Shown one piece after another: positions 2,369 through 20,069 of a DNA stretch of 40,622 bases. Source of the stretch: a virus; IMG/VR virus record IMGVR_UViG_3300038701_000778, positions 1-40,622 of that record; one strand, given 5' to 3'. The notes beneath the pieces were generated by a model that worked only from the letters and a program-made list of their open reading frames with translations, was not told where the DNA came from and made no database searches. The stretch's first letter is position 1, and every line of letters begins with the position of its first letter. Both the position numbers and the translations under genes were made by a program.

Positions 2369-2631
2369 ACTTCCTCCATTTCCTCATCGTCCGGCAGCTT
2401 ATCATCTAACCACTCAAGCGCGAAGTGAGTATATGTGTTCTCGTAGTACTTCCCATAGGTCAGGAGTAGCGTGTCAAGACCATACGCGAAGGCAAGCTCG
2501 GGGTCTTCGACTTGCTTGTATACTTCATCGAGCACATAGAATACAAAGTCACGGGTATGGTCGAGCCGGTCGGCGAGGTCTGTTTGCTCGGGCTGTCCGA
2601 ACTTACCAAGAACATCATCTATCCAGCTCAT
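2365..2631 (-). CDS. Hypothetical acidic protein
   Basis: 88 aa, family not recognised. The sequence is acidic and helical, ends in a run of Glu and Asp, and has no membrane segment or cysteine motif. The ATG at 2631 is chosen because it overlaps the upstream stop as ATGA, the usual junction in this operon. An upstream TTG at 2637 has GGAGG 5 nt away and is an alternative. It sits between the sugar nucleotidyltransferase and the sigma-like gene. Confidence 0.7.
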   Translation of the reverse strand: MSWIDDVLGKFGQPEQTDLADRLDHTRDFVFYVLDEVYKQVEDPELAFAYGLDTLLLTYGKYYENTYTHFALEWLDDKLPDDEEMEEV

Positions 2632-3287
2632 AACCAATCATACCTCCGGTCGTTCTTGAAAGGGTCACCGCCTGGCATTGCTGGAAATCCTCCCCAATAC
2701 TCATACCAATGCTTAATGCGGTAGTAGTCGAGGATTGTATCAACGGTAAGCGAAAATGAATATTGTATTTCATCGTCAACTATCCACTCACATTGGAACA
2801 GGTCCGGGCGCATGTAGATCGTATTCGTCACATGGTCGCTTGGCTCGGCACGTTTCAACGCATCGGCACGGAATACCTCGGCGTAGATCCCGTATGCCGT
2901 CAGTGCTGAGGGTCTGCCGTCTACCAAGTACCCTACATAGTCTGCTTTGGTTTCCTTCGCCTTCTTGATGAGCATATTAGCTCGGTAAGGATCTACGAAC
3001 GGTTGATCACCGCATAGCCGGACGAAGTATAGGTCAGGGTCATCCCATGTCTTAGCCTCAGCCACGAACCTTTCCGACACAAGGCCCTGATACATGGCAG
3101 CAAATCCGGTGTACTTCGCTATCTCATACGAATTTTCATCAGTCAGGATGACGGTATCGTCAACGTCCATCTCGTCTGTTGCGTCGACTACGTGCTGTAC
3201 GATAGCCTTTCCGCCGATAGGGAAGAGTACCTTGTTCGGGAGCCGCTCACTACCGAGCCTCGCTTGTATGCCTGCTATGAATGTCAT
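2628..3287 (-). CDS. SpsF/PseF-like cytidylyltransferase
   Basis: 219-aa nucleotidyltransferase of the SpsF/NeuA/PseF type, which activates a sugar acid with CTP to the CMP-sugar. The N-terminus carries the family signature GIQARLGSERLPNKVL (residues 6-21), with the nucleotide-binding Arg and Lys, followed by LCGDQPFVDP, which contains the metal-binding Asp. Length is normal for the family. It overlaps the acetyltransferase upstream and the 88-aa gene downstream by ATGA. With the neighbouring PseB, PseC, PseI and GNAT homologues it would make the final activated nonulosonic acid. Exact sugar specificity cannot be read from sequence. Confidence 0.86.
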   Translation of the reverse strand: MTFIAGIQARLGSERLPNKVLFPIGGKAIVQHVVDATDEMDVDDTVILTDENSYEIAKYTGFAAMYQGLVSERFVAEAKTWDDPDLYFVRLCGDQPFVDPYRANMLIKKAKETKADYVGYLVDGRPSALTAYGIYAEVFRADALKRAEPSDHVTNTIYMRPDLFQCEWIVDDEIQYSFSLTVDTILDYYRIKHWYEYWGGFPAMPGGDPFKNDRRYDWL

Positions 3288-3841
3288 CTATTGTACCTCC
3301 ACACGTCGGCTGTAATATCGAAACCACGGGCATTATACCATATCCCGTTGTAGTATTTCCGGTGGTTCATATGATACGTGTTCCCACCATATTTACTCAT
3401 CTCTTTTAGCCAAAAACTCGGAGCGCTTGTAGTGTAGTACACCTCTCCCCATACTGTGTGGAGTCCAAAGGTGTCGAACGCCTTTTCAAGTATCAGTGCG
3501 AACGCCCCGCTGCCATACCCCCTGCTTCGCTCATCAGGTGCGATGAAAAGGCTAACCTCAGCGGTCCTGTTTACCCAATCGATGTTCTCTAAGCCTCCGT
3601 ACCCTACGAGCTTCTCCGGGTCGTGGATGCCATAATGGTCTATTAGTCGAGTCTCCGGGCCTATGTATATTTCAGCCATGATAGACCACATGTACATGGT
3701 ATGGGACTGGGATACCTTTTCGTAGTACGATTGCTGATTGCTCTCGGTCAGGTAGTCAGGAGTGCGGAACGGCGCTATGTCTTGGTTCCGCCACTCGGCG
3801 ATACGGTATAGATCGTTAAGTGTCAGTGCTTTTAGTCTCAT
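3284..3841 (-). CDS. GNAT acetyltransferase (PseH-like role)
   Basis: 185 aa GNAT-fold N-acetyltransferase. The acetyl-CoA loop is visible as DERSRGYGSGAFALIL (R-x-x-G-x-G/A), after a beta strand AEVSLFIAP, and the N-terminus RLKALTLNDLYRIAEWRN is typical of RimJ/PseH-type enzymes. PseH adds the 4-N-acetyl group to the amino sugar made by PseC, and its position between PseI- and PseF-like genes fits that role. An insertion around residues 55-75 is unusual. Start and stop overlap neighbours by ATGA. Acetylation of another substrate cannot be excluded. Confidence 0.82.
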   Translation of the reverse strand: MRLKALTLNDLYRIAEWRNQDIAPFRTPDYLTESNQQSYYEKVSQSHTMYMWSIMAEIYIGPETRLIDHYGIHDPEKLVGYGGLENIDWVNRTAEVSLFIAPDERSRGYGSGAFALILEKAFDTFGLHTVWGEVYYTTSAPSFWLKEMSKYGGNTYHMNHRKYYNGIWYNARGFDITADVWRYNR

Positions 3842-4482
3842 GGCCTCGCCTCGTTATAGAGTTGTGCTACATCAGTAGGAGTCACCGCGAACGGCCCCGC
3901 GTCCGGGTTATCCTCCGAGTGCTCAAGTACATAGTGTTTTTCAATGACCTTCGGCTTATACATCCTGTAAAAGTCCCATCCTACGGTATGGTCCGACACA
4001 CCTGACCTGATCTGGCCCGGTTCAAACCGCTCAACGTACGTCTCGGACTTTGCAGGGTATTCACTCACGCAACACAATGGAGTAGCTTCCCGACACAGCA
4101 CGAACTCAGCCGCAGACGGGACAGACTGAACAACCTCAACGTCATAGGCCCGTACAACGTCTGCAAGCTCCCCCAAGTCGGGACGGTTCGCAATCTTGAT
4201 GAATGGTACATCGTAGTTTATTAAGTGCATTAAAGAATCCATATCAAAGACACTCGCCGTAACCTTAAAGCCCATGTCACGACCATAGTGATAGGCAAAG
4301 TCAAACGCCGCGAACGTTAGCGGCTCATTCGGTGGCTCGTTTCTGAATAACTGAAACTTAACCACAGGTTGATAAAATTGGAAGACCGGAGGAATAGACT
4401 TGTCCAGCTCGTAGAACATATCCCGTATCGTGGATTCGTCATTGTGGCATGTGTTGCCGGAGCCAAAGTCAAGTATTAGCAT
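3838..4482 (-). CDS. NeuB/PseI-like nonulosonic acid synthase, short form
   Basis: 214 aa, TIM-barrel enzyme condensing phosphoenolpyruvate with a six-carbon amino sugar to give a nonulosonic acid. Family landmarks are VVKFQLF (40-46), FIKIANRPDL (94-103), CCVSEYPA (137-144), GVSDHTVGWD (161-170) and VIEKHYVL (179-186), including the His residues that bind metal in NeuB. The C-terminal antifreeze-like SAF domain of cellular enzymes is absent, and the barrel itself looks shortened. The ATG at 4482 follows GGAG by 7 nt and gives a family-like N-terminus, so it is preferred over 4512. Confidence 0.83.
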   Translation of the reverse strand: MLILDFGSGNTCHNDESTIRDMFYELDKSIPPVFQFYQPVVKFQLFRNEPPNEPLTFAAFDFAYHYGRDMGFKVTASVFDMDSLMHLINYDVPFIKIANRPDLGELADVVRAYDVEVVQSVPSAAEFVLCREATPLCCVSEYPAKSETYVERFEPGQIRSGVSDHTVGWDFYRMYKPKVIEKHYVLEHSEDNPDAGPFAVTPTDVAQLYNEARP

Positions 4483-4717
4483 ATTCTTCTCCAAGCTGCC
4501 TTTCCACTTCATCTTTTAGCAGTTGTAGCCTATTTACCATAGTATCTATCCATGCTTCTACATCCCACACCTTCCACTCAAGTTCTATACCTGGAGGAAA
4601 GGCGAGCGCGGCATACTTCACATTGCAGTTAGGCTCTGAATGGAATGCAATTTTCATGGTGTACCTGTCGTGAAGGTGATCTTTTACGATCTCAAAATCA
4701 TCAACGTATATCCTCAT
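4469..4717 (-). CDS. Hypothetical protein in the sugar operon
   Basis: 82 aa, not recognised. It starts at the ATG at 4717, which has a strong GAGGAGGT ribosome site 5-6 nt upstream. It is a mixed charged protein with a long C-terminal helix and no cysteine motif or membrane segment. It overlaps the NeuB-like start by 14 bp and the 50-aa gene upstream by 17 bp, so it is embedded in the nonulosonic acid operon. It is far too small to be the missing PseG hydrolase. Confidence 0.72.
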   Translation of the reverse strand: MRIYVDDFEIVKDHLHDRYTMKIAFHSEPNCNVKYAALAFPPGIELEWKVWDVEAWIDTMVNRLQLLKDEVERQLGEEYANT

Positions 4718-4853
4718 TCCCAACCTCCTCATACTTCATCACGCTATCGCCGTCCCTGTCAGGTGCTCGCTCTGCCTTGACGTACACTGTAGCATTTTCA
4801 GGGATCTGTGTATAGTCGATGGTCGTCCCGTAGGCGTATATCTCTACATCCAT
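4701..4853 (-). CDS. Small ORF, 50 aa, in the sugar operon
   Basis: The frame from ATG 4853 to TGA 4701 encodes 50 residues starting MDVEIYAYGTTID. It overlaps the end of the aminotransferase-like gene by 10 bp and the start of the 82-aa gene by 17 bp, closing what would otherwise be a gap in a fully packed operon. The ribosome site is only moderate (AGGATGGG). No family is recognised. The beta-rich pattern and fit with the overlaps are the only support. Confidence 0.55.
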   Translation of the reverse strand: MDVEIYAYGTTIDYTQIPENATVYVKAERAPDRDGDSVMKYEEVGNEDIR

Positions 4854-5491
4854 GAGTACCCATCCTGGAATATCGGGAACTGCGACAGGTCAGGATAGGG
4901 TGAGTTCGGCAAGTCTTCGTTATCGTCCGGCATCCCGGCCATGAGCATTAAACCCCGTGCGGCATCGTCAGGTTTCATGTGGCAGTGGAAGCCTGGAGTG
5001 ATAAACTTGTCTTTATCTGCCGCTGTCTTCGGAGTCCGCCCGTCAAAGCGCATCTTCCGTAGGTAGTGGTATGCATCCTCATTTTCAGTTAGGATCATCC
5101 CTCCACGGCCTATAGGTAGGTGCTTCGTCTCGTGGAATGACAAGCACCGTAGCTCGTCTCGGCCCATGTACATACCCTTTCTGAAGCGTCTCGCCGAGTC
5201 TATGATATTCGTATCAGAGTAGATACCATTTGCCCTTGCTCTGAAACCGTATTCACCAATCCATTCCTCGTCCACAAATGAGCATTTACCACCGAGCGCG
5301 AGGACTGCATATGGTACGCCTACGTATGTATACTTAGGCATCTCGATAAGGTCCCACCTATGGAACATCTTATCGTATGCAAGGCATAGCTTGATAGCGT
5401 TGGTACAGGAGTCAACAGCCACGCCATACGGAGCCCCAGCATACTCAGCAACGCAACACTCGAACTCATCAACAACGTCGTAGATGTGCAT
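4844..5491 (-). CDS. DegT/DnrJ/EryC1-type aminotransferase (PseC-like), short form
   Basis: 215 aa PLP-dependent sugar aminotransferase homologue. It shows the N-terminal signature EYAGAPYGVAVDSCTNAIKL, an Asp in NIIDSARRF at the usual PLP-nitrogen contact, and the Schiff-base Lys region LSFHETKHLPIGRGGMIL followed by GFHCHMKPDDAARGL. Family members are usually around 370-400 aa, so the C-terminal small domain is missing. PseC aminates the 4-keto sugar made by PseB, whose gene is directly upstream. The ATG at 5491 joins the PseB stop as TGATG, with GAGG 7 nt before it. Confidence 0.8.
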   Translation of the reverse strand: MHIYDVVDEFECCVAEYAGAPYGVAVDSCTNAIKLCLAYDKMFHRWDLIEMPKYTYVGVPYAVLALGGKCSFVDEEWIGEYGFRARANGIYSDTNIIDSARRFRKGMYMGRDELRCLSFHETKHLPIGRGGMILTENEDAYHYLRKMRFDGRTPKTAADKDKFITPGFHCHMKPDDAARGLMLMAGMPDDNEDLPNSPYPDLSQFPIFQDGYSWM

Positions 5492-6399
5492 CACGGGGCC
5501 TCGATAAGTTCTCTAAGCTCAGACGAATAAAGCTTCGGCGCATGCTCTGACGTGTACGGTTTCAATCCCCTCGGGCTTCCTCCGGCATCAGGCGGTAAAC
5601 TGTAGTACCATCCAATATCCACTGCTCGATATGCTTCATACGCTGTCATAAGTGTTTCGTGAATCTTCTCCCCTGGTGATAGGCCTCGCTCAGTTATTAC
5701 CGCATCCTCAGCGAATGCATAGGCCAAGTCCTCGACGTAGAATGCATTAGCCTTACTCACAAGCATCTCAGCCGTGGGATATTCACCGGTCAAAGCGTGA
5801 ATAGCCAACTCAATAGCGTACTCAAACGTTACGCCGAACCGAGTACACCGCCGGTCGGTCAATTTGAACACCCCATAATCAGCCATCTTGCGGAACACGT
5901 CAAACACAGACCCACGAGAACCTATGACATTGCCATACCGTACCACAGACTGGTTACCGTCAAGTGTGATCCGCTCTGCAAGCATCTTTGTAGCCCCGTA
6001 TGCATTGATAGGCTCACACGCCTTGTCTGTTGATAGCAGTACCATCCTCGCGCCGACACGGTTAGCAGCGTCGACCACATTAGCCGTCCCTGCTACGTTT
6101 GTCTTGATAGCCTCTCTCGGATCTCTCTCGGCTGTATGTACGTGCTTCAGCGCAGCTGAGTGGATAACGTACCGTACCCCTTTCATAGCCCGGTCAAGTC
6201 GCGCCTTGTCCCTCACGTCGCCGATCTCAAATGTGACCCTTTCGTCTTCGGTCTTGCGCATTTCATACTGCTTGTACTCATCACGGGAGTAGACAACAAT
6301 CTCACTTGGATCGTACTTTTCGAGTATGTACGGGATAGCATGAGAGGCAAAGCTCCCTGTGCCGCCTGTTATCAGCCATTTCGCATTAGCGTAGATCAT
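5491..6399 (-). CDS. UDP-N-acetylglucosamine 4,6-dehydratase (PseB-like)
   Basis: 302-aa extended short-chain dehydratase. The NAD-binding loop TGGTGSF is at 11-17, followed by VVYSRDEYKQYEMRK, IGDVRDKARLDRAM and HSAALKHVHTAERDPREAIK, all hallmarks of PseB/FlaA1. The catalytic region is LLSTDKACEPINAYGATK, with Asp-Lys at 126-127 and the Tyr-x-x-x-Lys pair at 134-138. PseB makes the inverted 4-keto-6-deoxy sugar that begins pseudaminic acid synthesis; retaining dehydratases such as CapD are the alternative. A good AAAGGA site lies 8 nt before the ATG at 6399, which overlaps the RNA ligase stop. Confidence 0.92.
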   Translation of the reverse strand: MIYANAKWLITGGTGSFASHAIPYILEKYDPSEIVVYSRDEYKQYEMRKTEDERVTFEIGDVRDKARLDRAMKGVRYVIHSAALKHVHTAERDPREAIKTNVAGTANVVDAANRVGARMVLLSTDKACEPINAYGATKMLAERITLDGNQSVVRYGNVIGSRGSVFDVFRKMADYGVFKLTDRRCTRFGVTFEYAIELAIHALTGEYPTAEMLVSKANAFYVEDLAYAFAEDAVITERGLSPGEKIHETLMTAYEAYRAVDIGWYYSLPPDAGGSPRGLKPYTSEHAPKLYSSELRELIEAP

Positions 6400-7105: not shown

Positions 7106-7271
7106 CTTCACGTTCTCCACTTGAGGTAAACTCCCCGCACCAATCATCTTTATCAGCTATAGGATAATAGCTAAGATCTTTATACGGTATGAGCCTCGGA
7201 TACCGATGGCAAATACCATGCTCGGTATACTTATCACCTTCCCAAAAAAGACAATTTTCACACGTGCTCAT
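7095..7271 (-). CDS. Small Cys-rich, probably zinc-binding protein
   Basis: 58 aa starting at the ATG at 7271, which has a GAGG site 6 nt upstream. The sequence begins MSTCENCLFWEG, a C-x-x-C pair. Two more cysteines follow (in GICHRYP and DDWCGEF), enough for one zinc site. Similar tiny four-Cys proteins are common in phages, with unknown function. It overlaps the DnaB stop by 14 bp. Confidence 0.7.
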   Translation of the reverse strand: MSTCENCLFWEGDKYTEHGICHRYPRLIPYKDLSYYPIADKDDWCGEFTSSGEREDEA

Positions 7272-8481
7272 TATCAACCTCATCAAACCTTACAAACGCC
7301 TTGTTGAATCGCAGCTTGACACGGCCCTTTTGTCCGTCCCTGTTCTTTGCCACGATAGCCCATACCATATCTTCCTCCTCATCGTCACGGTGTAGCAGGA
7401 TAGCAACGTCAGCGTCCTTCTCGATATCAGAAGAGTCTGAGAAGTCTCCAAGGTGCGGTTGCCGTCCATCAACATCACGTCTCAATTGTGCCGCGGCTAC
7501 AACAGGTATGTCAAGCTGCCGACTCAAGTCCTTCAATGCCGTACTTGCTTGTGCCACTCTATCCCGCCGTTCTTCTTTCGATTGTACCCTAATTTTCTGT
7601 AGGTAGTCAACGAAAAGTATATCGCACCCGTGAAATTCCACCATCTGCCGGGCGATAGCCTGGACCTTACTGAGCTCCTGGTTTGGAACGTCGTAAATAA
7701 AGAACTTGGATGAATACACATCACCTGCTACAGACGTCAGCTTATCAAACGTCTCCTTAGTCACCATCCCTGTAGCTATTTGCTCTGACGGTATCGACCC
7801 CTGAGATGCGAAGGTCCGTAGCATCAACTCCTCTTTGCTCGACTCGATTGAGATGAAACCAACAGTAGCACCACCACGGATAGCAAGGTGGTCAGCGATG
7901 TTCAACAGCAAGGCTGACTTGCCCTCTGACGGACGGGCTCCGACATAGTACAGCCGCCTCTTTTGCCATCCGAGGATGAACGAGTCAAGCTTGTTATAGC
8001 CCGTCTCAATTCCCGGCAAGGCACCGCGAGCGTGATACCGTTCCTCAATCTGATGGACCGCATTATGAACAAGGTCCGCTCGGTTGTGTATTTTATCACC
8101 ATGGCCAGTGCTTAGAATGTCCGTCAGACCTTCGTAGGCGGCCGCTATGGCATTTTCTACCGTTTCGGCGTCTCGTAGCTCATTGGATAACGTCTCGACG
8201 CGTTTCCGGCGATATTCGTCAATAACCTTGCCCTGGTAATATTTCCAGTTCGCGGTACTTCCAACAGCCGAAGTCAGGGCAGAAATGTAGGCCGCATCTC
8301 CACCGTAGTCGTGAACAGTAAGCAAGTCAGGCTCTACACCGTCGGCAATGCATTTCCGGATAGCCTCATACGTGCGCCTGTTTTCAGGAGTTGTGAAGTG
8401 CCGTTCGTCAACAGACAGTTCATACCACAATTTGGAGTCAAGAAGGATCTGTCCGAGAAGGTTACGTTGGGATTCACTCAT
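7258..8481 (-). CDS. Replicative DNA helicase, DnaB-type
   Basis: 407 aa. The N-terminal helical domain is followed by the RecA-like motor: Walker A GARPSEGKSALLL (181-193), motif H1a-like GFISIESSKEEL, Walker B CDILFVDYLQKI (about 286-297), and the C-terminal SSDIEKDADVAILLHRD typical of DnaB. It unwinds DNA at phage forks. With the DnaD-like protein two genes upstream it probably recruits the host polymerase, since no phage polymerase is encoded. The ATG at 8481 is preferred to upstream codons because MSESQRNLLGQIL matches the usual DnaB start. It overlaps the previous gene by 8 bp, and its ribosome site is weak. Confidence 0.93.
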   Translation of the reverse strand: MSESQRNLLGQILLDSKLWYELSVDERHFTTPENRRTYEAIRKCIADGVEPDLLTVHDYGGDAAYISALTSAVGSTANWKYYQGKVIDEYRRKRVETLSNELRDAETVENAIAAAYEGLTDILSTGHGDKIHNRADLVHNAVHQIEERYHARGALPGIETGYNKLDSFILGWQKRRLYYVGARPSEGKSALLLNIADHLAIRGGATVGFISIESSKEELMLRTFASQGSIPSEQIATGMVTKETFDKLTSVAGDVYSSKFFIYDVPNQELSKVQAIARQMVEFHGCDILFVDYLQKIRVQSKEERRDRVAQASTALKDLSRQLDIPVVAAAQLRRDVDGRQPHLGDFSDSSDIEKDADVAILLHRDDEEEDMVWAIVAKNRDGQKGRVKLRFNKAFVRFDEVDNEHV

Positions 8482-9256
8482 CTGGTGAATCCGAAAAACA
8501 ACCGCAGCCGCCCCAATCAAATAGGTCACATTGCATCGGACCATCAAGATAACGCTCGCGGAACTCTCTGAGAGTTAAATATTCATTCACCCCGTTCTCG
8601 GTTTTCTTTAAGAAGGGATGGTTAGAACCAATATGGTCATACACTTCCTGCTCCTTACGCTCCATCTCAAGATACCTATCAGGCCATGTCTCGTACAGCT
8701 TCTTAAACTGTGCCTGCCCTGATTTGATGCAAAACCCTCCGCAGTTTGCATGCTGAAACCCATACTTGTACATCCGTGGCGGTTCGAGGCCCTCGGCCTT
8801 TGCAGCCTCAATCATGCCTGGTTTTTCGATATATGGCTCATCACACAAGGGAGCTAAGTATATCCAAGGTAGCTTCCGGGCTGCCATCCTGACAAAGCGA
8901 TGCTCTTCGGTCCAGTCGATGCCAACATACACGCGAACAGTCTCAGGGGTGAAGTTATCAGCTATCCACTTATCAGCAAGCTCACGCTTTAGGATTCGTG
9001 AACATGGGTCAATACGAGAATTGCCCATGAACTTAACATCCTTGAATACCTCGAACACATCACGCCCGTCTGCAATGATGATAAGCTCAGAACCGACATT
9101 ATCAGCTGCCTCATGAAGAAAACGGTAATTGTCCTCGTCCTCCATCTTCGTATCCATGAACAGCAGCTTAGTATTATCAGCGCCATGCATATCAGCAACG
9201 CGCTTTGCAGCAGCCCATGAGCCTATCCCGCTTGAAAACATTACGATGTGTGTCAT
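8474..9256 (-). CDS. PP-loop ATPase, PAPS-reductase/adenine nucleotide alpha hydrolase family
   Basis: 260 aa. The N-terminus HIVMFSSGIGSWAAAKRV is the PP-loop (usual form SGGxxS; here the first Gly is Ser). It is followed by LLFMDTKMEDEDNYRFL and by SRIDPCSRILKREL, as in PAPS-reductase-like proteins of phages. The C-terminus adds Cys clusters, NCGGFCIKSGQAQF and CDLFDWGGCGCF, that could bind metal or sulfur. The family activates substrates by adenylation for sulfur or nitrogen transfer; the phage substrate is unknown. It lies between the DnaD-like and DnaB genes and near the DpdA-like gene, so a role in nucleic-acid modification is possible. Confidence 0.82.
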   Translation of the reverse strand: MTHIVMFSSGIGSWAAAKRVADMHGADNTKLLFMDTKMEDEDNYRFLHEAADNVGSELIIIADGRDVFEVFKDVKFMGNSRIDPCSRILKRELADKWIADNFTPETVRVYVGIDWTEEHRFVRMAARKLPWIYLAPLCDEPYIEKPGMIEAAKAEGLEPPRMYKYGFQHANCGGFCIKSGQAQFKKLYETWPDRYLEMERKEQEVYDHIGSNHPFLKKTENGVNEYLTLREFRERYLDGPMQCDLFDWGGCGCFSDSPDE

Positions 9257-9963
9257 TTCCCTAACCTCGATACATCTATCATGCCCTCATCCTCCTGCAT
9301 CACCTTCGATACCTTATCACGTTTCAGCCAGTCTTCGCAAGCAGCGGCATAATCGCGGTACTGCCGTTTCCCGCCCTTCTTCGCATCCTCCCAGCAGACA
9401 ATTTTATCAAGGTAAGCATCGCACACTTTCAACCCATACTCCGATACGATACGCTCCCATCGAGATTTCCCAAGAGGCAGTGATAGAGTAGGGTGGCTTA
9501 TTTTCTCCGGTCCCTTCTTTTCTCTTATTGTCTTGTCTAGTCTAGTCTTTTCTTCACAATTGTCTGTGACAGTCTGAGACAGCAATTCTGGAGATTTTAT
9601 GTTGACATTTTTGTAGTTTTGGATGAGTGCTCGTATCTTCTTTGATCGCGTCTCCGACTGCTGTAAGTACCGGTATACCTTCGTGCACATGATTTTTCCC
9701 TCGATTTCCTCCTGTTCAATGAGCCCTTGAGCGATGAAATACCAGAGCATCTCCTCGATCTTAGCCGTGTCTTCGTTGAACAATTCAGCTATATCTGTGC
9801 TCGCCTCCTCAAGTATCGGGAGCGGTCGGTCGTCCTCAATATGCGCCGTGATAGACTCAAGGATGAAGTTGTACAGGCCATATCCCCTGAGCCCGTACTT
9901 GCTTATGACTCGGCGCATCTTAACGTCGTAGGTCATATTACTCATGTGTTTGAACCATTTCAA
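9253..9963 (-). CDS. DnaD-like replication initiator/helicase loader
   Basis: 236 aa. The N-terminal part (KWFKHMSNM, then KMRRVISKYGLRGYGLYNFI) matches the DUF4373/Lin1244-type winged-helix domain of phage replication initiators. The C-terminal WERIVSEYGLKVCDAYL to YRDYAAACEDWLKRD resembles a DnaD C-terminal region that binds DNA or helicase. The start is a TTG at 9963 overlapping the previous stop as TTGA. It gives the family-typical KWFKH beginning, whereas the next ATG at 9945 has no ribosome site. It likely loads the DnaB-type helicase encoded two genes downstream. Confidence 0.8.
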   Translation of the reverse strand: MKWFKHMSNMTYDVKMRRVISKYGLRGYGLYNFILESITAHIEDDRPLPILEEASTDIAELFNEDTAKIEEMLWYFIAQGLIEQEEIEGKIMCTKVYRYLQQSETRSKKIRALIQNYKNVNIKSPELLSQTVTDNCEEKTRLDKTIREKKGPEKISHPTLSLPLGKSRWERIVSEYGLKVCDAYLDKIVCWEDAKKGGKRQYRDYAAACEDWLKRDKVSKVMQEDEGMIDVSRLGK

Positions 9964-10745
9964 AACGGCAGTTCTCCCTGCATATCGTTACTCTTGCCTA
10001 TCGATTCAAAGAATGGGATGCATGCATTGAATCGCTCTTTCAGACCATCCCTATCGTATGACCATAGAAGATTCCAATCAATACCAATCCCCCTAATGTA
10101 TGCCCTTACCATACTACTGAACGGGTGATGATCCCAATTCAATGCAGATTCACTGTTGAACTTGATTGTCTTCCACGGCGTTATGACCATCCCAAATCTT
10201 GCCAGCCTAAATGCGTACGTCCCATCAACAGAATAGAATGGATAGGTTGATAGTATATCAGTGTCCATAAATCCGAAACCATGGGCCATACAATCATTAC
10301 CAGCTATCGAAAAGCATCTATCAAGGAATTGCTTCTTCTTTATCCTGCTCCCCTTGTTTATTGCAGCGAACCCCAAGTATTCCGAGTTGTCAATGTAATG
10401 ATTGAGCGTTCGTTCTGAATCCATCTCATGAAATACAGGGATAGGATTGAATCCGCACGATCTGCTATAATCGTAAAGTTCTATGCTCCTATCATTGTCT
10501 CCTATACTATCAAGCGCTGCATATGCATCAATCTGGTCTGCATTGATATTGATGAAATCGTGGTACTTTTCGATGTCTATCTTCCTCCCTTGTTTCCAAG
10601 CGACGTACCCTCCTGAGTCGATAAATAGACGCTTCGCCCATGATGGTCTATCAATGCGGAATACCCTATTTGAGAAAGCATGGAGCACGTTTATATCTGG
10701 CAATCCCTCCCAATTGAGAGGGACCGCAGAGTAGTAAATAATCAA
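9960..10745 (-). CDS. DpdA-like 7-deazaguanine DNA transglycosylase (TGT fold)
   Basis: 261 aa, related to tRNA-guanine transglycosylase. FIDSGGYVAW (41-50) corresponds to the DSGGYQ motif of TGT, with the general-base Asp at 43. Then come YAALDSIGDN, a GFAAINKGSR loop in the place of the substrate-binding GG motif, and AHGFGFMDTD with YSVDGTY, where D174 fits the nucleophile. The pattern matches phage DpdA proteins, which exchange guanine in DNA for a 7-deazaguanine base. It is directly downstream of a queuosine-precursor transporter. The start is TTG 10745 (TTGA overlap). A tRNA rather than DNA target cannot be excluded. Confidence 0.78.
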   Translation of the reverse strand: MIIYYSAVPLNWEGLPDINVLHAFSNRVFRIDRPSWAKRLFIDSGGYVAWKQGRKIDIEKYHDFININADQIDAYAALDSIGDNDRSIELYDYSRSCGFNPIPVFHEMDSERTLNHYIDNSEYLGFAAINKGSRIKKKQFLDRCFSIAGNDCMAHGFGFMDTDILSTYPFYSVDGTYAFRLARFGMVITPWKTIKFNSESALNWDHHPFSSMVRAYIRGIGIDWNLLWSYDRDGLKERFNACIPFFESIGKSNDMQGELPF

Positions 10746-11332
10746 TGCCTATTTCTCGTAAGAAAATAAAATACAGGAGTGTCGAGCGCTGCGACAATAA
10801 GCTTGACGATGTACTGGGATAACATTATTGCCACGATGCCGGGGGAGCCCCAGAATGCGATAAGAATAAATACAGACGTGTCTATAGCCTGGCTCGTCAT
10901 CGTTGACAGATTATTCCTTAGCCATTTATGCCTCCCCTTTGTCACCGATTTAAGAAGACTGAATAGTCTAACATCAACATTTTGGGATATGAGATATGCA
11001 ACCATTGACCCTATAACAATCCTCGCATTAGTGGCAAAGAATACATCATATGCGCCATTAACCTCAGATGCGAATGCAGGGGAACGCAACGCGCCAACTC
11101 CTGCTATCACAATCATGGCAAATGCCGAAAACCCAAATCCTCCCCACACAACCTTAGTAGTGTATTCTTTCCCATATAGCTCGGTAAGAATGTCAGTGCA
11201 CAGGAATGTAACCGCATACAACACGAACGCTCCAGGCAACACCATACCACCAATCAATACAAGCCTATTCGTAATGATATTTGACAGCACAATCGAAACA
11301 AAGAACAACCCACTGATTATATCACGTTTCAT
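10742..11332 (-). CDS. Queuosine-precursor transporter, YhhQ/QPTR (DUF165) family
   Basis: 196-aa integral membrane protein with about six hydrophobic segments. The YhhQ signature is visible: VLSNIITNRLV in the first helix, then PGAFVLYAVTFLCTDILTEL and YGKEYTTKVVW, with the acidic T-D-x-x-x-E pair. The family imports preQ0/preQ1-type 7-deazaguanines. The ATG at 11332 has GGGAG 6 nt upstream and lies 2 nt after the helicase-methyltransferase stop. The gene overlaps the DpdA-like start, so supply and insertion of the base are probably co-translated. A membrane transporter is unusual in a 40-kb phage. Confidence 0.88.
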   Translation of the reverse strand: MKRDIISGLFFVSIVLSNIITNRLVLIGGMVLPGAFVLYAVTFLCTDILTELYGKEYTTKVVWGGFGFSAFAMIVIAGVGALRSPAFASEVNGAYDVFFATNARIVIGSMVAYLISQNVDVRLFSLLKSVTKGRHKWLRNNLSTMTSQAIDTSVFILIAFWGSPGIVAIMLSQYIVKLIVAALDTPVFYFLTRNRH

Positions 11333-11334
11333 TT

Positions 11335-13584
11335 TCAACTCCCGAATAATGTTTGTTCACCACGCTCACTTTGAGCAGCCATAAGATTCTTGCAAGCCTG
11401 CCTCCAATAGCTCTCTTTCAACTCCGCACCTATGAACCTCCTGCCCATCTTCACAGCCTCATACCCTTCAGATCCAATCCCGCCGAATGGCGACACTACC
11501 AAGTCTCCTTCGAGACTCCATAGCTGGAGAGCCCTATGGATAACCTGTAACTGCAATGGGGCAATGTGCCTTTCGTCCTTGTCATCCCTTGCACTTCTGT
11601 GCTGCAGCGTATCAGATGGATTTATGTCCATCCACACAGGAGATGCATATCGCTGCCATACGTCGATTGAGTATCGTTTGCCTTGGTTGGCAGTCTTTTT
11701 ACCTTCGTTTATATCAGTTCCAACAAAGTGATCAAACTCACCGGTGATAGGCTTAGTGTTTTCTCCAGGCTTTCGCATTGTGACAAGGTAGTCAGGAATT
11801 CCTTGGCGGCTCATTGCTGAGTCTTTTACAATCTGCTTATGGAGTAGCCCGAGCGCCTTCGTTCGCTGCATTGCAGTGACCGGATCTTTCCATATCACAA
11901 CCTCAGAATGGAAGATAAATCCCTCAGCTTCGTACATCCTGATAAGGTCGCCTCTGAAGTCTCTAATACCAATGTAGCCATTATGAGCTTTGCTCGTGGG
12001 GAGATTCATGCAATGGAACGATATGAGCCTACCTGGTCTGAGCGTACGGAATTGCTCCTTGACCAAGAACTTGTAATGTTCGTAGAACTCTCCATCGCTC
12101 TTGCTGTTTCCCATGTCTCGGTCGCTCGCGCTATACGTATACAGGGACGAGAACGGAGGAGAAAAGATCATGTAGTCAACAGAATCATCGTCAAGTTTCT
12201 TATGCACTTCAACGGTATCACCAAGGTACATAGTCCACGACTCGCCACTCTTCACATCTTCTCGGTAATCGTCGCTCGTCCGCTTGATCCCCTTGATGTT
12301 CTCTTCGTTTATTGCATGCATGTGCTGCACCATCTCCTCGGCCATCTTCATGGCATCGCGCTCCTTTCGTTCAATATTCCTAACCACAGCGCCCTCAAGC
12401 TCTGATACAATGATTTTGACATCAACAGGATTTTCCTGACCAAATCGCCAGCACCTGCGTACAGCCTGGTAGTATTGCTCGTAGCTGTCTGATAGCCCGA
12501 CGAATACAACATTATGGCACTGTTGGAAATTCAAACCATACCCAAACATAGAAGGCTTGGAAACAAGCACGCGAATAGATCCATTCGCAAACCCGATAGC
12601 AGAATTGATCTTGTGATCATTGCTGTCAGATCCCTTTACCTCAACTGCATCAGGTATCAGCTTCTTCAGTGTAGCGCTCTCGTCATTCCTATCGCACCAT
12701 ACCAGCCATTGCTCTGTGCTGTTGTTCACCATCTCAGCCGCTGCTTTAGCGCGGTCCTCGGTAGTGTCCCTCCTCGCAGCTTGCCGTTCTTGCAACGTCT
12801 GAGCCTCGACAGGGAATAGAAAACCATCCTGCGGTTCGTCATGTTGAATAGTAACTTGCTCTACAGATAGTTCCGGAAGAATGAATCTACCATCGTCGTA
12901 CCCAAGGTCAGACGGCTTGCGGATCATCACCGCCCATGATGCAACCCACCGCCAGAACTCGCTCTCAGCATGGCCTTTTAATCTCCATTTCTGTGTCTCG
13001 CCACCATCATGGACAAAAAACATACTGAGCATTTCAGTGCGCGTCATCGCACCTACGAACTCTGCGTGGTTTCCAAGCTCCATAAAATCATTAGGTGCAG
13101 GAGTAGCAGTGCAAGCCAACCTGAAAGGGATAGATCCAAATCGTTCTATGATCTCGGTCCTAATCTTGCCTGTGTAGCTCTTCAGAATTGAAGATTCATC
13201 AAGGACTATCCCTGTGTAGTTATCAGGGTCGAAATGCTCAAGGCGTTCATAGTTCGTTATTGATACCCTGGTAGGAACTTCCCCATGCTCTGAGTACTCC
13301 ATCTTGTCTTCGTGGAACTTCTCAGCCTCGCGGATTGTTTGAGATGCCACAGCAAGAGGAGCGACTATCAGCACATTGCCTGGTATGTGATGAGCCCATT
13401 CCAATTGCATAGGAGTTTTCCCCATGCCGCAATCTGCGAATATACAACCCCTGCCGCGCTTCAATGCCCATCTTACTATGTCAGCCTGGAAGTCGAAGAG
13501 CATATCGTTGATCTCTGGGATCTCTTTCAATCCGGTAGGCTTATCGTCTATAGACTTTTGCTTTAGAAAATCTTGATACGTCAT
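11335..13584 (-). CDS. SNF2-type helicase fused to DNA methyltransferase
   Basis: 749 aa, two enzymes in one chain. Residues 25-430 form a superfamily-2 motor: FADCGMGKT (Walker A, 49-57), IVLDESS (126-132), ACTATPAPND (157-166) and QAVRRCWRFGQ (373-383). Residues 445-730 form a DNA methyltransferase with SPPF (475-478, motif IV of N4-cytosine/N6-adenine enzymes), the HIAPLQLQVIHRAL region, and SPFGGIGSEGYEA (698-710, AdoMet motif I); the circular order IV then I is of the beta type. It probably protects phage DNA against restriction. No nuclease motif was noticed. It is the first gene of the modification cluster. Confidence 0.9.
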   Translation of the reverse strand: MTYQDFLKQKSIDDKPTGLKEIPEINDMLFDFQADIVRWALKRGRGCIFADCGMGKTPMQLEWAHHIPGNVLIVAPLAVASQTIREAEKFHEDKMEYSEHGEVPTRVSITNYERLEHFDPDNYTGIVLDESSILKSYTGKIRTEIIERFGSIPFRLACTATPAPNDFMELGNHAEFVGAMTRTEMLSMFFVHDGGETQKWRLKGHAESEFWRWVASWAVMIRKPSDLGYDDGRFILPELSVEQVTIQHDEPQDGFLFPVEAQTLQERQAARRDTTEDRAKAAAEMVNNSTEQWLVWCDRNDESATLKKLIPDAVEVKGSDSNDHKINSAIGFANGSIRVLVSKPSMFGYGLNFQQCHNVVFVGLSDSYEQYYQAVRRCWRFGQENPVDVKIIVSELEGAVVRNIERKERDAMKMAEEMVQHMHAINEENIKGIKRTSDDYREDVKSGESWTMYLGDTVEVHKKLDDDSVDYMIFSPPFSSLYTYSASDRDMGNSKSDGEFYEHYKFLVKEQFRTLRPGRLISFHCMNLPTSKAHNGYIGIRDFRGDLIRMYEAEGFIFHSEVVIWKDPVTAMQRTKALGLLHKQIVKDSAMSRQGIPDYLVTMRKPGENTKPITGEFDHFVGTDINEGKKTANQGKRYSIDVWQRYASPVWMDINPSDTLQHRSARDDKDERHIAPLQLQVIHRALQLWSLEGDLVVSPFGGIGSEGYEAVKMGRRFIGAELKESYWRQACKNLMAAQSERGEQTLFGS

Positions 13585-17283: not shown

Positions 17284-17571
17284 ATCACAAGTTTCTGACC
17301 CTGGTTATTTTTCGTGCTCCAGGTACACGTATTTTGCTGCTATCAACGATAGCCCGGTCAACGACCGATGGACGAGGCGGGAGTCGAACCCTGCTCCATC
17401 ACGATATGCACCGTACACCACTCGCCCAAAATCCCCACCGACCCTACTGATAATCAACGTCGTGCGTTGACGTTCAGATCGGCAGGGTGCCCGCATTGCT
17501 ACCACACCATCCACCGTGTAGCGGGCTCGGCCCGTCCCTGCTCCGAGTCAACCGTCTCGGCCCGTATCCGG
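17284..17571 (-). other. Non-coding interval with hairpins, 13-bp repeats and tRNA-like sequence
   Basis: I see no convincing gene in these 288 bp, the longest such gap in the leftward transcript. It holds a tRNA-like segment (17369-17427), a perfect hairpin GCTATC-GTT-GATAGC near 17345, a hairpin TCAACG-CACGA-CGTTGA near 17460, a GC-rich hairpin GCGGG-CAC-CCTGC, and copies of the 10-mer CTCGGCCCGT. The 13-mer CCGGTCAACGACC flanks it at 17354-17366 and 17568-17580, each copy able to fold into a hairpin with an AAC loop. It could be a structured RNA, a replication or packaging site, or the remains of an inserted element. Confidence 0.5.
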
Positions 17572-17580
17572 TCAACGACC
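17354..17580. repeat. Pair of 13-bp direct repeats flanking the non-coding interval
   Basis: CCGGTCAACGACC occurs at 17354-17366 and 17568-17580, 214 bp apart. The right copy extends to a perfect palindrome CCGGTC-AAC-GACCGG and contains the stop codon of the HicB-like gene; the left copy folds with five pairs. Confidence 0.7.
17369..17427 (-). other. tRNA-like sequence, 59 nt, lacking one arm
   Basis: On the minus strand a 7-bp acceptor-like stem (GGGCGAG with CTCGTCC, one G-U) and discriminator A enclose a 6-bp hairpin (TACGGT-GCAT-ATCGTG) and a T-arm-like GGG-TTCGACT-CCC with only three good pairs. It is about 17 nt too short for a normal tRNA and has no standard anticodon loop. It may be a degenerate tRNA or a tRNA mimic. 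Confidence 0.35.
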
Positions 17581-17763
17581 GGCGGTAGGATCGTCCTCCC
17601 GTCGAGCGTCATCCAATCGCATCGTCAGTACGGCGATAGTATGTTCCATCGAGTTGCAAAGCGCTTCCATAGCAGTATGACCGTGACCCTTCAAACCATG
17701 GCCCTCGTCGTGCTCACATATCCAGCACTCGTCTTCGTAGGACCATGTAATCGTGTATTTCAT
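17572..17763 (-). CDS. HicB-like protein
   Basis: 63 aa. MKYTITWSYEDECWICEHD, then LKGHGHTAMEALCNSMEHT, follows the HicB partial RNase-H fold pattern (an edge strand, a W-rich hairpin, then a helix after T-x-x-EAL). There is no attached DNA-binding domain and no HicA toxin beside it, so it may be an orphan antitoxin-like or inhibitory protein. The ATG at 17763 overlaps the upstream stop (ATGA) and follows GGGAGGG closely; the ATG at 17766 lies too close to that site. Confidence 0.7.
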   Translation of the reverse strand: MKYTITWSYEDECWICEHDEGHGLKGHGHTAMEALCNSMEHTIAVLTMRLDDARREDDPTAGR

Positions 17764-18044
17764 CATCCCTCCCGTCGAGCGTCGATCTGTGTTGCGATTT
17801 CTTCTGCCGCATCGGTCATACCCTTTTTGTAGTGATACACCGGATCGTCTGTGTAAAGTCCATCCATCTCCAACAGAGCCGAGTCTGCCATGCGTTGGGC
17901 AATCCGAGCACACGCTTCTCGCTCATCGGCGATCATGCGCTTTACCACGTCGGCGCGGATGTACTCCGTGTCATCGTCCAGCTTTGTATCGAGCATCTGT
18001 ATGTCAATTACGCGTTTACTCGTCCATATCCTCTCAGGCATCAT
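17763..18044 (-). CDS. Hypothetical protein
   Basis: 93 aa, with a helical ADEREACARIAQRMADSALL segment common in many small phage and prophage proteins of unknown function. No catalytic motif is seen. The ATG at 18044 has GAGGAG 8 nt upstream and the gene overlaps its upstream neighbour by 11 bp. Confidence 0.75.
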   Translation of the reverse strand: MMPERIWTSKRVIDIQMLDTKLDDDTEYIRADVVKRMIADEREACARIAQRMADSALLEMDGLYTDDPVYHYKKGMTDAAEEIATQIDARREG

Positions 18045-18420
18045 CAGTTAAACTCCTCACCACCGCGTTCCATGCGCGAATCACCTGAGCCTTGGTTTCG
18101 AGATCGCCCACGTAAAAGAAACCGACTCCGGCGCGCCATCCGCCTGCATATTGCTGTATCCGCGGATACTCCCCATCCGGCCCCGGCAGTATCTCCGGCT
18201 CAGGCGCGTGGAGGGAATCCCGCCAATCGCCTTCCCACTGGATGTCTATCGCTTCGAGGGAGTACACAAAAATATCAGACACCCACGCCTTGCCCGAAAA
18301 ATGCGGTCGCCGTTCATAGGCGTACCACATACCACATTTATCAATGGCAACCCACGCGCCCATAGCATTAGCCACTTTCTGCGGCGTGATCGGCGCTGTG
18401 ATTTCACTGATCTTTTTCAT
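18034..18420 (-). CDS. Hypothetical protein
   Basis: 128 aa from the ATG at 18420, with a strong GGAGGGG site. It is Trp-rich (at least seven), with a compact alpha/beta look in MWYAYERRPHFSGKAWVSD and VGFFYVGDLETKAQVIRAW. No family is recognised. It overlaps the gene upstream by 17 bp and the 93-aa gene downstream by 11 bp. Confidence 0.75.
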   Translation of the reverse strand: MKKISEITAPITPQKVANAMGAWVAIDKCGMWYAYERRPHFSGKAWVSDIFVYSLEAIDIQWEGDWRDSLHAPEPEILPGPDGEYPRIQQYAGGWRAGVGFFYVGDLETKAQVIRAWNAVVRSLTDDA

Positions 18421-18622
18421 CCTTCCCCTCCTGTTCGGCCTCGTCGGCCATGCGTACCCATTCCTCAAGCTCCTCCAACTCAGCTATCAAATCTTCCGCC
18501 CGTTCGATCAATCTGCAACCAGGGCATTCGAATGGATTGCCGATCCACTGCTTTTGGTTGAGATGGTATCTCCGGTATGCGGTTGTTAACTGCTTGAGCA
18601 CACTAAGAATCTGATCGTTCAT
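18404..18622 (-). CDS. Hypothetical helical protein
   Basis: 72 aa from the ATG at 18622, with GGAG 7 nt upstream. It is almost all helix, with an acidic coiled-coil-like C-terminus (ERAEDLIAELEELEEWVRMA) and one CPGC pair. The ending VRMADEAEQ is shared with the neighbouring 92-aa protein (VRMADEAEK), suggesting related or duplicated C-terminal ends. Confidence 0.72.
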   Translation of the reverse strand: MNDQILSVLKQLTTAYRRYHLNQKQWIGNPFECPGCRLIERAEDLIAELEELEEWVRMADEAEQEGKDEKDQ

Positions 18623-18881
18623 CGTTCTTCTCCGCCTCGTCGGCCATGCGTACAAGCAGGTCCCGTACCTGTACGTACACCGCGTCCATTGCATCGGCGT
18701 GACCGATGTAACCCTCTGGGTAATCATCGATCTCGTCAACTCTTCTCTCAGCCTCCCGCAACGTCTCCGCACGGCAGCGGCGGAGTTTAATTTCGAGCGT
18801 TACCACCATCTCCGCGAGTGTTTCCGGGTCCTCAGTTGCAAGCTCTTCCATTCGTATTCGTTCATCAAAGTCAAACTTCAT
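18603..18881 (-). CDS. Hypothetical charged protein
   Basis: 92 aa from the ATG at 18881, with GGAGGAG 6 nt upstream. Highly charged and helical, it resembles many unassigned phage early proteins. It overlaps the gene downstream by 20 bp and the 27-aa ORF upstream as ATGA. It shares the ending VRMADEAE with the next protein. Confidence 0.72.
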   Translation of the reverse strand: MKFDFDERIRMEELATEDPETLAEMVVTLEIKLRRCRAETLREAERRVDEIDDYPEGYIGHADAMDAVYVQVRDLLVRMADEAEKNDERSDS

Positions 18882-18961
18882 TCCAACTCCTCCGCCAGCT
18901 CCTCGGAGGTCAGGTGTCGGCGGCCGGTGAACCAGTCCCATCTAACCATACACTTAGACAT
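18878..18961 (-). CDS. Small ORF, 27 aa
   Basis: The frame from ATG 18961 to TGA 18878 encodes 27 residues starting MSKCMVRWDWFTGRRH and ending in an acidic helix. A GAGGAG site lies 9 nt upstream. The stop overlaps the next start as ATGA and the start overlaps the RHH stop. Such precise junctions on both sides make a real micro-protein likely, although no family is known. Confidence 0.55.
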   Translation of the reverse strand: MSKCMVRWDWFTGRRHLTSEELAEELE

Positions 18962-19169
18962 CGTACATTACTCCTCGGAGCTCTACCAGCTCCCTAATGT
19001 GATCCAGGGACATATCCCTGTTCCGGTCCGGCGATACGATCTGAGTATAGCCTATCCACAGGATAGCACGCAATACCTCAGAGCGCTTTACACCGGTTTT
19101 GTTGGCTAATTCCGTCACCGCCTTCTCGAATGCAGCAGGAACCTGTACAGCAAGCATCGTCTTGTCCAT
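18954..19169 (-). CDS. Ribbon-helix-helix (CopG/Arc-type) regulator
   Basis: 71 aa. MLAVQVPAAFEKAVTELANK then TGVKRSEVLRAILWIGY gives the beta strand plus two helices of the RHH DNA-binding fold, with the expected T/S-R-S-E turn. It is the first gene of the leftward transcript, facing the rightward island, so it is well placed to control its own promoter and the divergent one. No strong ribosome site precedes the ATG at 19169. Confidence 0.75.
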   Translation of the reverse strand: MDKTMLAVQVPAAFEKAVTELANKTGVKRSEVLRAILWIGYTQIVSPDRNRDMSLDHIRELVELRGVMYDV

Positions 19170-19235
19170 GTAAGATAGGGTAATGATATGATCGTGGAGT
19201 GTAAAGAGATTTGGAAAAGTTTTTTTGAAAAGTTG

Positions 19236-19263
19236 TTGACACTGTCTGTAGGTGTGATATTAT
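19236..19263 (+). promoter_or_regulatory. Sigma70-type promoter P1
   Basis: TTGACA at 19236-19241 and TATTAT at 19258-19263, 16 bp apart, preceded by an A/T-rich UP-like tract with a run of seven T. It lies 20 bp upstream of the first rightward gene. The same layout recurs at 19827-19854. Confidence 0.8.
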
Positions 19264-19282
19264 AGCAGATAAGGAGATTGGA

Positions 19283-19474
19283 ATGACTAACGAGAAAGCA
19301 GTCGTCGCGTACATTGAAAAGATCGAGGAAGCAAGGCGATACCTTAACATGATCAAGATGAGCCTTGATGACCACATGGGCATCGGCCCTGATGACGTTG
19401 ATTGGTCGCACGTCGGAAGTATAAGCCATGTCCTTGAGTCACTCAAAGACATAGAAGAGTTCATAGGTAGGTAG
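19283..19474 (+). CDS. Hypothetical small protein, first of the rightward island
   Basis: 63 aa, one of only three rightward genes. It is helical and acidic, with a long amphipathic N-terminal helix (NEKAVVAYIEKIEEARRYLN). No family is recognised. AAGGAG lies 6 nt before the ATG, and promoter P1 is just upstream. Probably an early or host-takeover protein, judged only from its strong expression signals. Confidence 0.78.
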   Translation: MTNEKAVVAYIEKIEEARRYLNMIKMSLDDHMGIGPDDVDWSHVGSISHVLESLKDIEEFIGR

Positions 19475-19477
19475 GGC

Positions 19478-19756
19478 ATGAAGAAGTCAGAAGCAGTTAA
19501 CAAGGCAAAGAAAGAGTCGATCCTGATCCGCTCCGATGGAGCGTATGGAGTCTCCACCGTTGGGAGCGGATGGTCCGGGGGGCTCACCTACCGGCAGGCC
19601 CAGAGGCTCCGTGGGGACATCGTCATCAACCGAGCGCTTAGGCACATGGGCTACCCAGACCATCAGATAGCAATGCTACCTATGGATGTGTACAGCGGGA
19701 ACTTCCGCGAGTCGCTGGATCTGGCTATCGATATACTCGATACCATGAGTACCTAA
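19478..19756 (+). CDS. Hypothetical protein in the rightward island
   Basis: 92 aa, with a basic N-terminus, a Gly/Ser-rich stretch (GVSTVGSGWSGGLTYRQAQR) and a helical C-terminus. It begins 3 nt after the previous stop, with a GGTAGG site, so the two genes are co-transcribed. An intrinsic terminator follows at 19772. No family is recognised. Confidence 0.75.
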   Translation: MKKSEAVNKAKKESILIRSDGAYGVSTVGSGWSGGLTYRQAQRLRGDIVINRALRHMGYPDHQIAMLPMDVYSGNFRESLDLAIDILDTMST

Positions 19757-19771
19757 ATGGTACAATAAGCC

Positions 19772-19805
19772 ATGGCTGTACTATTACGGTACGGCCATTT
19801 TTTCT
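19772..19805 (+). terminator. Rho-independent terminator after the first two rightward genes
   Basis: A 10-bp stem ATGGCTGTAC-GTACGGCCAT (19772-19781 with 19789-19798, one G-U), a 7-nt loop, and then a run of T. It separates the first rightward unit from promoter P2. Confidence 0.85.
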
Positions 19806-19826
19806 AAGTTTTTTTTGAAAAAGTTA

Positions 19827-19854
19827 TTGACACATTTTCTAAGTGTGATATACT
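19827..19854 (+). promoter_or_regulatory. Sigma70-type promoter P2
   Basis: TTGACA at 19827-19832 and TATACT at 19849-19854, 16 bp apart, with the same upstream T tract and TGAAAA as P1 and the same GTGTGATAT just before and into the -10 box. It drives the third rightward gene. Confidence 0.82.
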
Positions 19855-19882
19855 CTAAGTATCAAGAGTTAAGGAGATTATG

Positions 19883-20068: not shown

Positions 20069-20069
20069 T

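What the first reader, a model, noticed from the sequence alone, without database searches (positions are those of the whole stretch)
9960..11332. YhhQ-type transporter coupled to a DpdA-like transglycosylase: imported 7-deazaguanine for phage DNA
A queuosine-precursor transporter gene overlaps a TGT-fold gene with DpdA-like motifs (DSGGY, HGFGF, SVDG). No preQ0 synthesis genes (folE, queD, queE, queC) are seen. The simplest reading is that the phage salvages preQ0 or preQ1 through its own transporter and swaps it for guanine in DNA, which is known to protect phage DNA from restriction. A salvage-only design is less studied than synthesis-based ones.
Basis: partly seen in the sequence, partly recalled or inferred. 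Interest (0 to 1): 0.82.

Follow-up and report, generated by a model that had tools for sequence, protein, structure and literature searches.

The report
Phage transporter–DpdA pair for guanine salvage
This bacterial virus carries, as two overlapping genes, a membrane importer for modified-guanine building blocks and an enzyme of the kind that swaps such bases into phage DNA, so it probably hides its DNA from host defences with material taken up from outside rather than made by itself; the idea has been proposed before, but this stripped-down version is little described and turns out to recur in many viruses.

Summary
Observation confirmed. Window 10742-11338 (-) is a QPTR/Vut_1 queuosine-precursor transporter; it overlaps by 4 bp a 261-aa TGT-fold gene (9960-10745, -). 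The latter matches the phage DpdA family (phrog_887, E 7.5e-35), is 30% identical to the DpdA of phage Seurat, keeps D43, D79, H155 and D174, and its model is closest to the solved DNA preQ0 insertase DpdA (Z 13.8), though tRNA TGTs follow at 12.9. FolE, QueD, QueE, QueC, QueF and DUF6884/DpdC are not found in the record, which is nearly but not fully complete. New evidence: of 51 records (48 IMG/VR, 3 GenBank phages) with a transporter of this kind, 33 also have a phrog_887 gene. In all 30 IMG/VR records measured it lies on the same strand within 805 bp; in 18 cellular transporter loci none does. Nineteen of the 33 show no FolE or QueD, among them phages Roos and phiFN37, deposited as complete genomes. 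Best reading: imported preQ0 or preQ1 is exchanged for guanine in phage DNA. The base, the DNA target and the protection are inferred. Phage preQ0 transporters (Vid5, EC151) and DpdA-only phages were reported before, so this is a new variant of a known kind.

The parts
10742..11338 (-). QPTR/YhhQ-type (Vut_1, COG1738-like) queuosine-precursor transporter, 198 aa, TTG start
   Evidence: PF02592 E 4.1e-49, TIGR00697 E 4.3e-45, both over cut-off; 28% identical to E. coli YhhQ over about 154 aa, E 2e-11; 57% identical to L002
9960..10745 (-). DpdA-type TGT-fold base-exchange enzyme, 261 aa, TTG start
   Evidence: phrog_887 E 7.5e-35; 30% identity to Seurat DpdA, E 5e-22, and 24% to Salmonella phage 7-11 DpdA, E 4e-10; model closest to 7ui4 DpdA, Z 13.8
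10742..10745 (-). 4-bp stop/start overlap (TTGA) coupling transporter and DpdA
   Evidence: coordinates
10617..10619 (-). D43 codon of the DSGG motif; aligns with the DSGG catalytic-site Asp of E. coli Tgt
   Evidence: invariant in 23 viral relatives and in Seurat DpdA; BLAST alignment of 35-72 with E. coli Tgt 81-120
10509..10511 (-). D79 codon (ALDSIGD motif), probable base-binding Asp
   Evidence: invariant in 23 relatives; Seurat DpdA has the same motif (VLDGIGD), misaligned by MAFFT
10281..10283 (-). H155 codon (HGFGF motif), probably the conserved phage-DpdA histidine
   Evidence: invariant
10224..10226 (-). D174 codon (SVDG motif), probable nucleophile (equivalent of the FDCV Asp of Tgt)
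   Evidence: invariant; the role is by analogy to TGT, from general knowledge
11335..13584 (-). SNF2-like helicase fused to an N6/N4-type DNA methylase (SPPF motif), overlapping the transporter by 4 bp; possible companion of the module
   Evidence: PF01555 E 3e-15, Helicase_C E 4e-8; 76% identical and in the same order in L002, while nearly all other genes of the two phages differ
9253..9963 (-). Lin1244-like / replisome-organiser-like replication protein, next gene of the operon
   Evidence: PF14297 E 4e-8; phrog_20981 E 5e-22

Best explanation
A salvage-only 7-deazaguanine DNA-modification cassette. The phage transporter sits in the host membrane and brings in a free 7-deazaguanine base, most likely preQ0 or preQ1. 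The phage DpdA, a TGT-fold enzyme, then cleaves the glycosidic bond of chosen guanines in phage DNA through D174 as nucleophile, releases guanine and inserts the imported base, with D43 and D79 holding the base. As the record holds no QueF, DUF6884/DpdC or QueC-type gene, the inserted base is probably left as imported. The modified guanines would make the DNA resistant to many restriction enzymes. Shown here: gene identities, intact motifs, fold, operon, lack of synthesis genes in the record, and repeated adjacency of the two genes in viruses. Inferred: transport activity, the base, the DNA substrate, the level of modification and the protective effect.
For: Family profiles. The phrog_887 profile matches this gene but none of 14 control genomes, among them E. 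coli, whose tgt is read, so it separates DpdA from tRNA TGT. Predicted fold: the solved DNA preQ0 insertase DpdA ranks first (Z 13.8, 164 residues, 2.8 A) and all 50 listed entries are TGT-family; the best named viral structural matches are mostly annotated queuine tRNA-ribosyltransferases. Catalytic residues invariant in 23 relatives and, with D79 read by eye, in Seurat DpdA. 33 of 51 records with this transporter have the enzyme; 30 of 30 measured pairs are same-strand and at most 805 bp apart; random placement would give about 10^-19.6 for 14 non-identical records of 20 kb or more; 0 of 18 cellular transporter loci have it. In L003 and phiFN37 a DUF6884 (dpdC-family) gene lies between the two. 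The window and G001 share the helicase-methylase/transporter/DpdA module but little else. Literature: CAjan DNA has dPreQ0 at about 32% of G and a dpdA deletion abolishes it (PMC6884629).
Against: No chemistry on this virus; the host is unknown. DpdA and tRNA TGT structures score within about 1 Z of each other, so the fold does not decide the substrate; the model is only moderate (pLDDT 69, C-terminus under 50). DpdA-only phages are a mixed record: Orion showed no modification and 7-11 only 0.02% of G. The transporter is below the E. coli YhhQ equivalog cut-off, so its substrate could be queuine. Synthesis genes could lie in the host or in the missing end of the record.
Confidence: 0.66

Rival explanations
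1. The pair serves tRNA: the imported base is put into the wobble position of host tRNA to favour phage translation.
For: QPTR transporters feed tRNA queuosine salvage in bacteria, and fusions of QPTR with bacterial TGT are reported (PMC11130926); the fold is shared with tRNA TGT; Hutinet et al. suggest such a role for some phage Q genes.
Against: The enzyme belongs to the phage DpdA family, whose profile does not match cellular TGTs of the control genomes; no Pfam family, TGT included, matches at E 1; it is 261 aa, lacks the CxCxxC zinc motif visible in E. coli Tgt, and no tRNA gene is in the record.
Confidence: 0.12
2. Host-supplied base: DpdA modifies phage DNA with preQ0 made by the host's own queuosine pathway, and the transporter only tops up the pool.
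For: 7-11 carries DpdA only and its DNA has some dADG; eight of 33 transporter-DpdA records also carry FolE and QueD, and Vid5 and EC151 carry the transporter inside synthesis clusters, so the transporter is not only a substitute for synthesis.
Against: The transporter is kept beside DpdA in 19 records with no FolE or QueD, which suggests that import matters where phage synthesis is absent. The host here is unknown, so this is not excluded.
Confidence: 0.14
3. The imported base is queuine or another base, and DpdA has a shifted substrate or is a non-modifying relic, as may be the case in Orion.
For: Chlamydia QPTR carries queuine and not preQ0/preQ1 (PMC11130926); Orion DNA was unmodified despite a DpdA, in a host without preQ0 synthesis; one related locus, L018, has DpdA split in two frames.
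Against: All motif residues are intact in the window and in L002 at 56% identity; the gene pair is conserved between phages that differ nearly everywhere else.
Confidence: 0.08

Closest known systems
Phage DpdA of Seuratvirus (Seurat, CAjan) with full preQ0 synthesis
   Same: Same DpdA family (30% identity over 214 residues to Seurat, conserved D43/H155/D174); CAjan DNA carries dPreQ0 only with its dpdA (PMC6884629).
   Different: Seurat carries FolE, QueD, QueE and QueC beside DpdA; the window has none and has the transporter overlapping DpdA.
Phages Vid5 and EC151 (phage preQ0/preQ1 transporter plus DpdA)
   Same: Phage-encoded Vut_1-type transporter in a 7-deazaguanine cluster; salvage was proposed (PMC6266253, PMC8310023).
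   Different: In both the transporter lies in a synthesis cluster (folE, queD, queC and queE all named for EC151); the window has no synthesis gene.
DpdA-only phages (group 3 of Hutinet 2019: 7-11, Orion)
   Same: DpdA without preQ0 synthesis; uptake was suggested as one source.
   Different: The paper found no link between YhhQ and any phage group and does not describe an adjacent YhhQ-DpdA cassette in the parts read; here they overlap.
Fusobacterium phage phiFN37 and Faecalibacterium phage Roos
   Same: Deposited as complete genomes with adjacent DpdA and transporter, and no FolE, QueD, QueE, QueC (over cut-off) or QueF.
   Different: DpdA upstream of the transporter; phiFN37 has a DUF6884 gene between; low sequence identity to the window.
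Bacterial dpd islands (DpdA-K)
   Same: DpdA-type insertion of preQ0 in DNA; YhhQ lies in about 9% of islands (PMC11888242); best structural match is a DpdA (7ui4).
   Different: No DpdC-family gene in the window; DpdB and the restriction part were not searched as families, and the helicase-methylase matches DpdE only weakly (24 bits, cut-off 500).

Membership tests
Phage DpdA (phrog_887-type, 7-deazaguanine DNA transglycosylase) | Sequence match to the phage DpdA profile | tested here: met
   phrog_887 E 7.5e-35 over residues 36-193; 14 control genomes do not match it
Phage DpdA (phrog_887-type, 7-deazaguanine DNA transglycosylase) | Conserved catalytic Asp residues and the phage-DpdA histidine | tested here: met
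   D43, H155, D174 invariant in 23 relatives and Seurat DpdA; D79 invariant in the 23 and present by eye in Seurat
Phage DpdA (phrog_887-type, 7-deazaguanine DNA transglycosylase) | TGT-type TIM-barrel fold | tested here: met
   7ui4 DpdA Z 13.8, then TGTs Z about 12-13; model pLDDT 69 with a solid core
Phage DpdA (phrog_887-type, 7-deazaguanine DNA transglycosylase) | Inserts a 7-deazaguanine in DNA | not testable with these tools
   needs LC-MS of virion DNA or an enzyme assay
QPTR/YhhQ queuosine-precursor transporter (COG1738) | Vut_1 / TIGR00697 profile over cut-off | tested here: met
   167 bits against 27.2; 154 bits against 50.95
QPTR/YhhQ queuosine-precursor transporter (COG1738) | E. 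coli YhhQ equivalog (preQ0/preQ1 transporter, PRK11212) cut-off | tested here: not met
   43.7 bits against 252; so family member, but not shown to be the E. coli-type preQ0/preQ1 carrier
QPTR/YhhQ queuosine-precursor transporter (COG1738) | Transports preQ0, preQ1 or queuine | not testable with these tools
   needs complementation in an E. coli queD yhhQ strain
tRNA-guanine transglycosylase (bacterial TGT) | Pfam TGT profile match | tested here: not met
   no Pfam family at E 1
tRNA-guanine transglycosylase (bacterial TGT) | C-terminal zinc motif CxCxxC | tested here: not met
   present in E. coli Tgt (CDCYTC), absent from the window protein by reading both sequences
Phage preQ0/G+ synthesis pathway | FolE, QueD, QueE, QueC in the genome | tested here: not met
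   none found in the record; the QueE model used is one subfamily, and the record lacks its portal 5' end
Bacterial dpd island | DpdA with DpdB/DpdC and restriction genes | tested here: inconclusive
   DUF6884 (DpdC family) not found; DpdB and most dpd genes not searched

The most novel reading that the evidence does not exclude
A transporter-DpdA cassette without synthesis genes is a widespread third route to 7-deazaguanine phage DNA, moved between unrelated phages as a unit, that makes anti-restriction protection depend on precursor supplied by neighbouring microbes or the host, so that protection varies with the environment.
Probability: 0.45. Interest if true: 0.66.

Novelty: new variant of a known kind. 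Interest (0 to 1): 0.46.

Why it matters
If phage DNA modification runs on imported base, then resistance to restriction becomes conditional on what other cells release, linking queuosine cross-feeding in a community to phage host range. The recurrent gene pair gives isolates that could be tested at once (Roos, phiFN37), and a clean test of whether DpdA-only phages lack modification because they lack precursor, which the Orion result left open.

Tried and rejected
A single-sequence search of solved structures with the DpdA protein found nothing and a profile search found only an irrelevant receptor chain; only the predicted fold linked it to TGT/DpdA. HHalign against E. coli Tgt alone was not significant (probability 7%). 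The transporter has no relative among solved structures by sequence. The first viral-contig scan with the DpdA protein found no relative and the two-sequence profile found only G001, so relatives were collected through the transporter; this means that the counts describe transporter-bearing viruses, not all DpdA-bearing ones. The reverse link is weak: 170 phage records match the window DpdA but only six match its transporter. The host could not be named: terminase and capsid relatives come from scattered hosts and the transporter tree puts the window with L002 among viral sequences. Considered and rejected: that the contigs are bacterial dpd islands mislabelled as viral; L003 and phiFN37 carry terminase genes near the cassette and Roos and phiFN37 are phage isolates. 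The random-placement figure treats the 14 records as independent, which they are not fully.

Full report
What is there. The window is one 40,622-bp virus record (IMG/VR, linear). On the minus strand an operon runs: helicase-methylase fusion (11335-13584), Vut_1 transporter (10742-11338), TGT-fold gene (9960-10745), replication protein (9253-9963), a PAPS-reductase-like protein (8474-9256) and a DnaB-type helicase (7258-8547). The first four genes overlap their neighbours by 4 bp each. The quoted motifs DSGGY, HGFGF and SVDG are in the protein.

Identity of the transporter. PF02592 and TIGR00697 are well over their cut-offs; the E. coli YhhQ equivalog PRK11212 is hit but far under its cut-off. 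E. coli YhhQ aligns at 28% identity. It is therefore a QPTR-family protein whose exact substrate is open: E. coli QPTR takes preQ0 and preQ1, Chlamydia QPTR takes queuine (PMC11130926).

Identity of the enzyme. It has no Pfam match but matches phrog_887, the phage 'queuine tRNA-ribosyltransferase' family that holds DpdA. By BLAST it is 30% identical to the Seurat DpdA and 24% to the DpdA of phage 7-11. Among 23 viral relatives D43, G45, D79, H106, H155, S172, D174 and G185 do not change; most of these also stand in Seurat. An AlphaFold2 model from 23 sequences (pLDDT 69, pTM 0.70; residues 35-175 solid, the C-terminus poor) has a crystal structure of the DNA preQ0 insertase DpdA as its best match (7ui4, Z 13.8), then tRNA TGTs (Z 12.9 and lower). 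Rows within 1 Z are tied, so fold proves the family, not the substrate. The phrog_887 profile, however, matches none of 14 control genomes, and the protein lacks the zinc motif seen in E. coli Tgt.

The gene pair recurs. Searching IMG/VR with a three-sequence transporter profile gave 45 loci; with the further loci of the first scan, three GenBank phages and the window, 51 records were searched with phrog_887. Thirty-three match. For the 30 IMG/VR records other than the window I computed positions: every one has the DpdA gene on the transporter's strand, at most 805 bp away. Random placement would give about 10^-19.6 over 14 non-identical records of at least 20 kb, an optimistic figure as the records share ancestry. 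Of 18 transporter loci from cellular genomes none has such a gene within the up to 6 kb held on each side. The transporter tree mixes viral and cellular branches, so the viral transporters have more than one history.

Salvage-only or with synthesis. Of the 33 records, 27 were also searched for FolE and QueD: 19 have neither, 8 have both. QueC is over its cut-off in only three of 51 records. The 19 include Roos (54 kb) and phiFN37 (85 kb), deposited as complete genomes; several of the others are fragments. In seven records a DUF6884 gene, the family of dpdC by PMC11888242, is present; where positions were read it lies between DpdA and transporter, which fits dADG as product there. The window has none of these and no QueF.

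Module. The window and record G001 share the helicase-methylase (76% identity), transporter (57%) and DpdA (57%) in the same order, a capsid protein at 45%, and almost nothing else. The three genes therefore behave as a unit, and the methylase may be a second DNA-modification layer; this is inference.

Completeness. The portal gene runs off the record at 40621 and the large terminase lies at the other end (296-1489), so the missing stretch probably lies between terminase and portal and is likely short. Synthesis genes there cannot be excluded.

Mechanism and literature. CAjan DNA has dPreQ0 at about 32% of G and loses it on dpdA deletion; DpdA-only phages gave 0.02% dADG (7-11) or nothing (Orion, whose host lacks preQ0 synthesis) (PMC6884629). 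A phage-borne importer is a simple remedy for that lack. Vid5 and EC151 already paired a phage preQ0 transporter with DpdA, inside synthesis clusters, and Hutinet et al. named uptake as a possible source and noted YhhQ homologues without a pattern. What I did not find described in the papers searched is the stripped transporter-DpdA cassette and its frequency; absence from the open-access library is not proof of novelty, and a relevant 2024 review was not held.

Verdict. Observation confirmed; interpretation the most likely one but unproven in substrate, target and effect; a new variant of a known kind.

Noticed in passing
window 2628-6399 (-): Five genes in a row match CTP transferase, GNAT acetyltransferase, NeuB, DegT aminotransferase and Polysacc_synt_2: most of a pseudaminic/nonulosonic-acid-like sugar pathway in a phage.
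   Followed up: partly
window 11335-13584 (-): Helicase fused to an N6/N4-type DNA methylase, 76% identical in the otherwise different phage G001, next to the same two genes.
   Followed up: partly
window 8474-9256 (-): PAPS-reductase-like ATP pyrophosphatase (phrog_424, E 5.6e-47); phiFN37 has a gene so annotated a few kb from its cassette.
   Followed up: no
L017, L022, L037, L049: Transporter and DpdA with FolE, QueD and a QueE-like hit but no QueC: a possible route that stops at 7-carboxy-7-deazaguanine.
   Followed up: partly
L003:982-2738, L007:8752-10579: DpdA, DUF6884 (dpdC family) and transporter in one row in two viruses.
   Followed up: yes
L018:6402-7240: DpdA split over two overlapping frames beside an intact transporter: decay, programmed frameshift or sequencing error.
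   Followed up: no
L004:3173-3958: 261-aa protein near the transporter that looks TGT-like by eye but has no Pfam match and no phrog_887 match.
   Followed up: no
window 17305-20070: Stretch of nearly 3 kb with no convincing gene on either strand among short overlapping frames.
   Followed up: no
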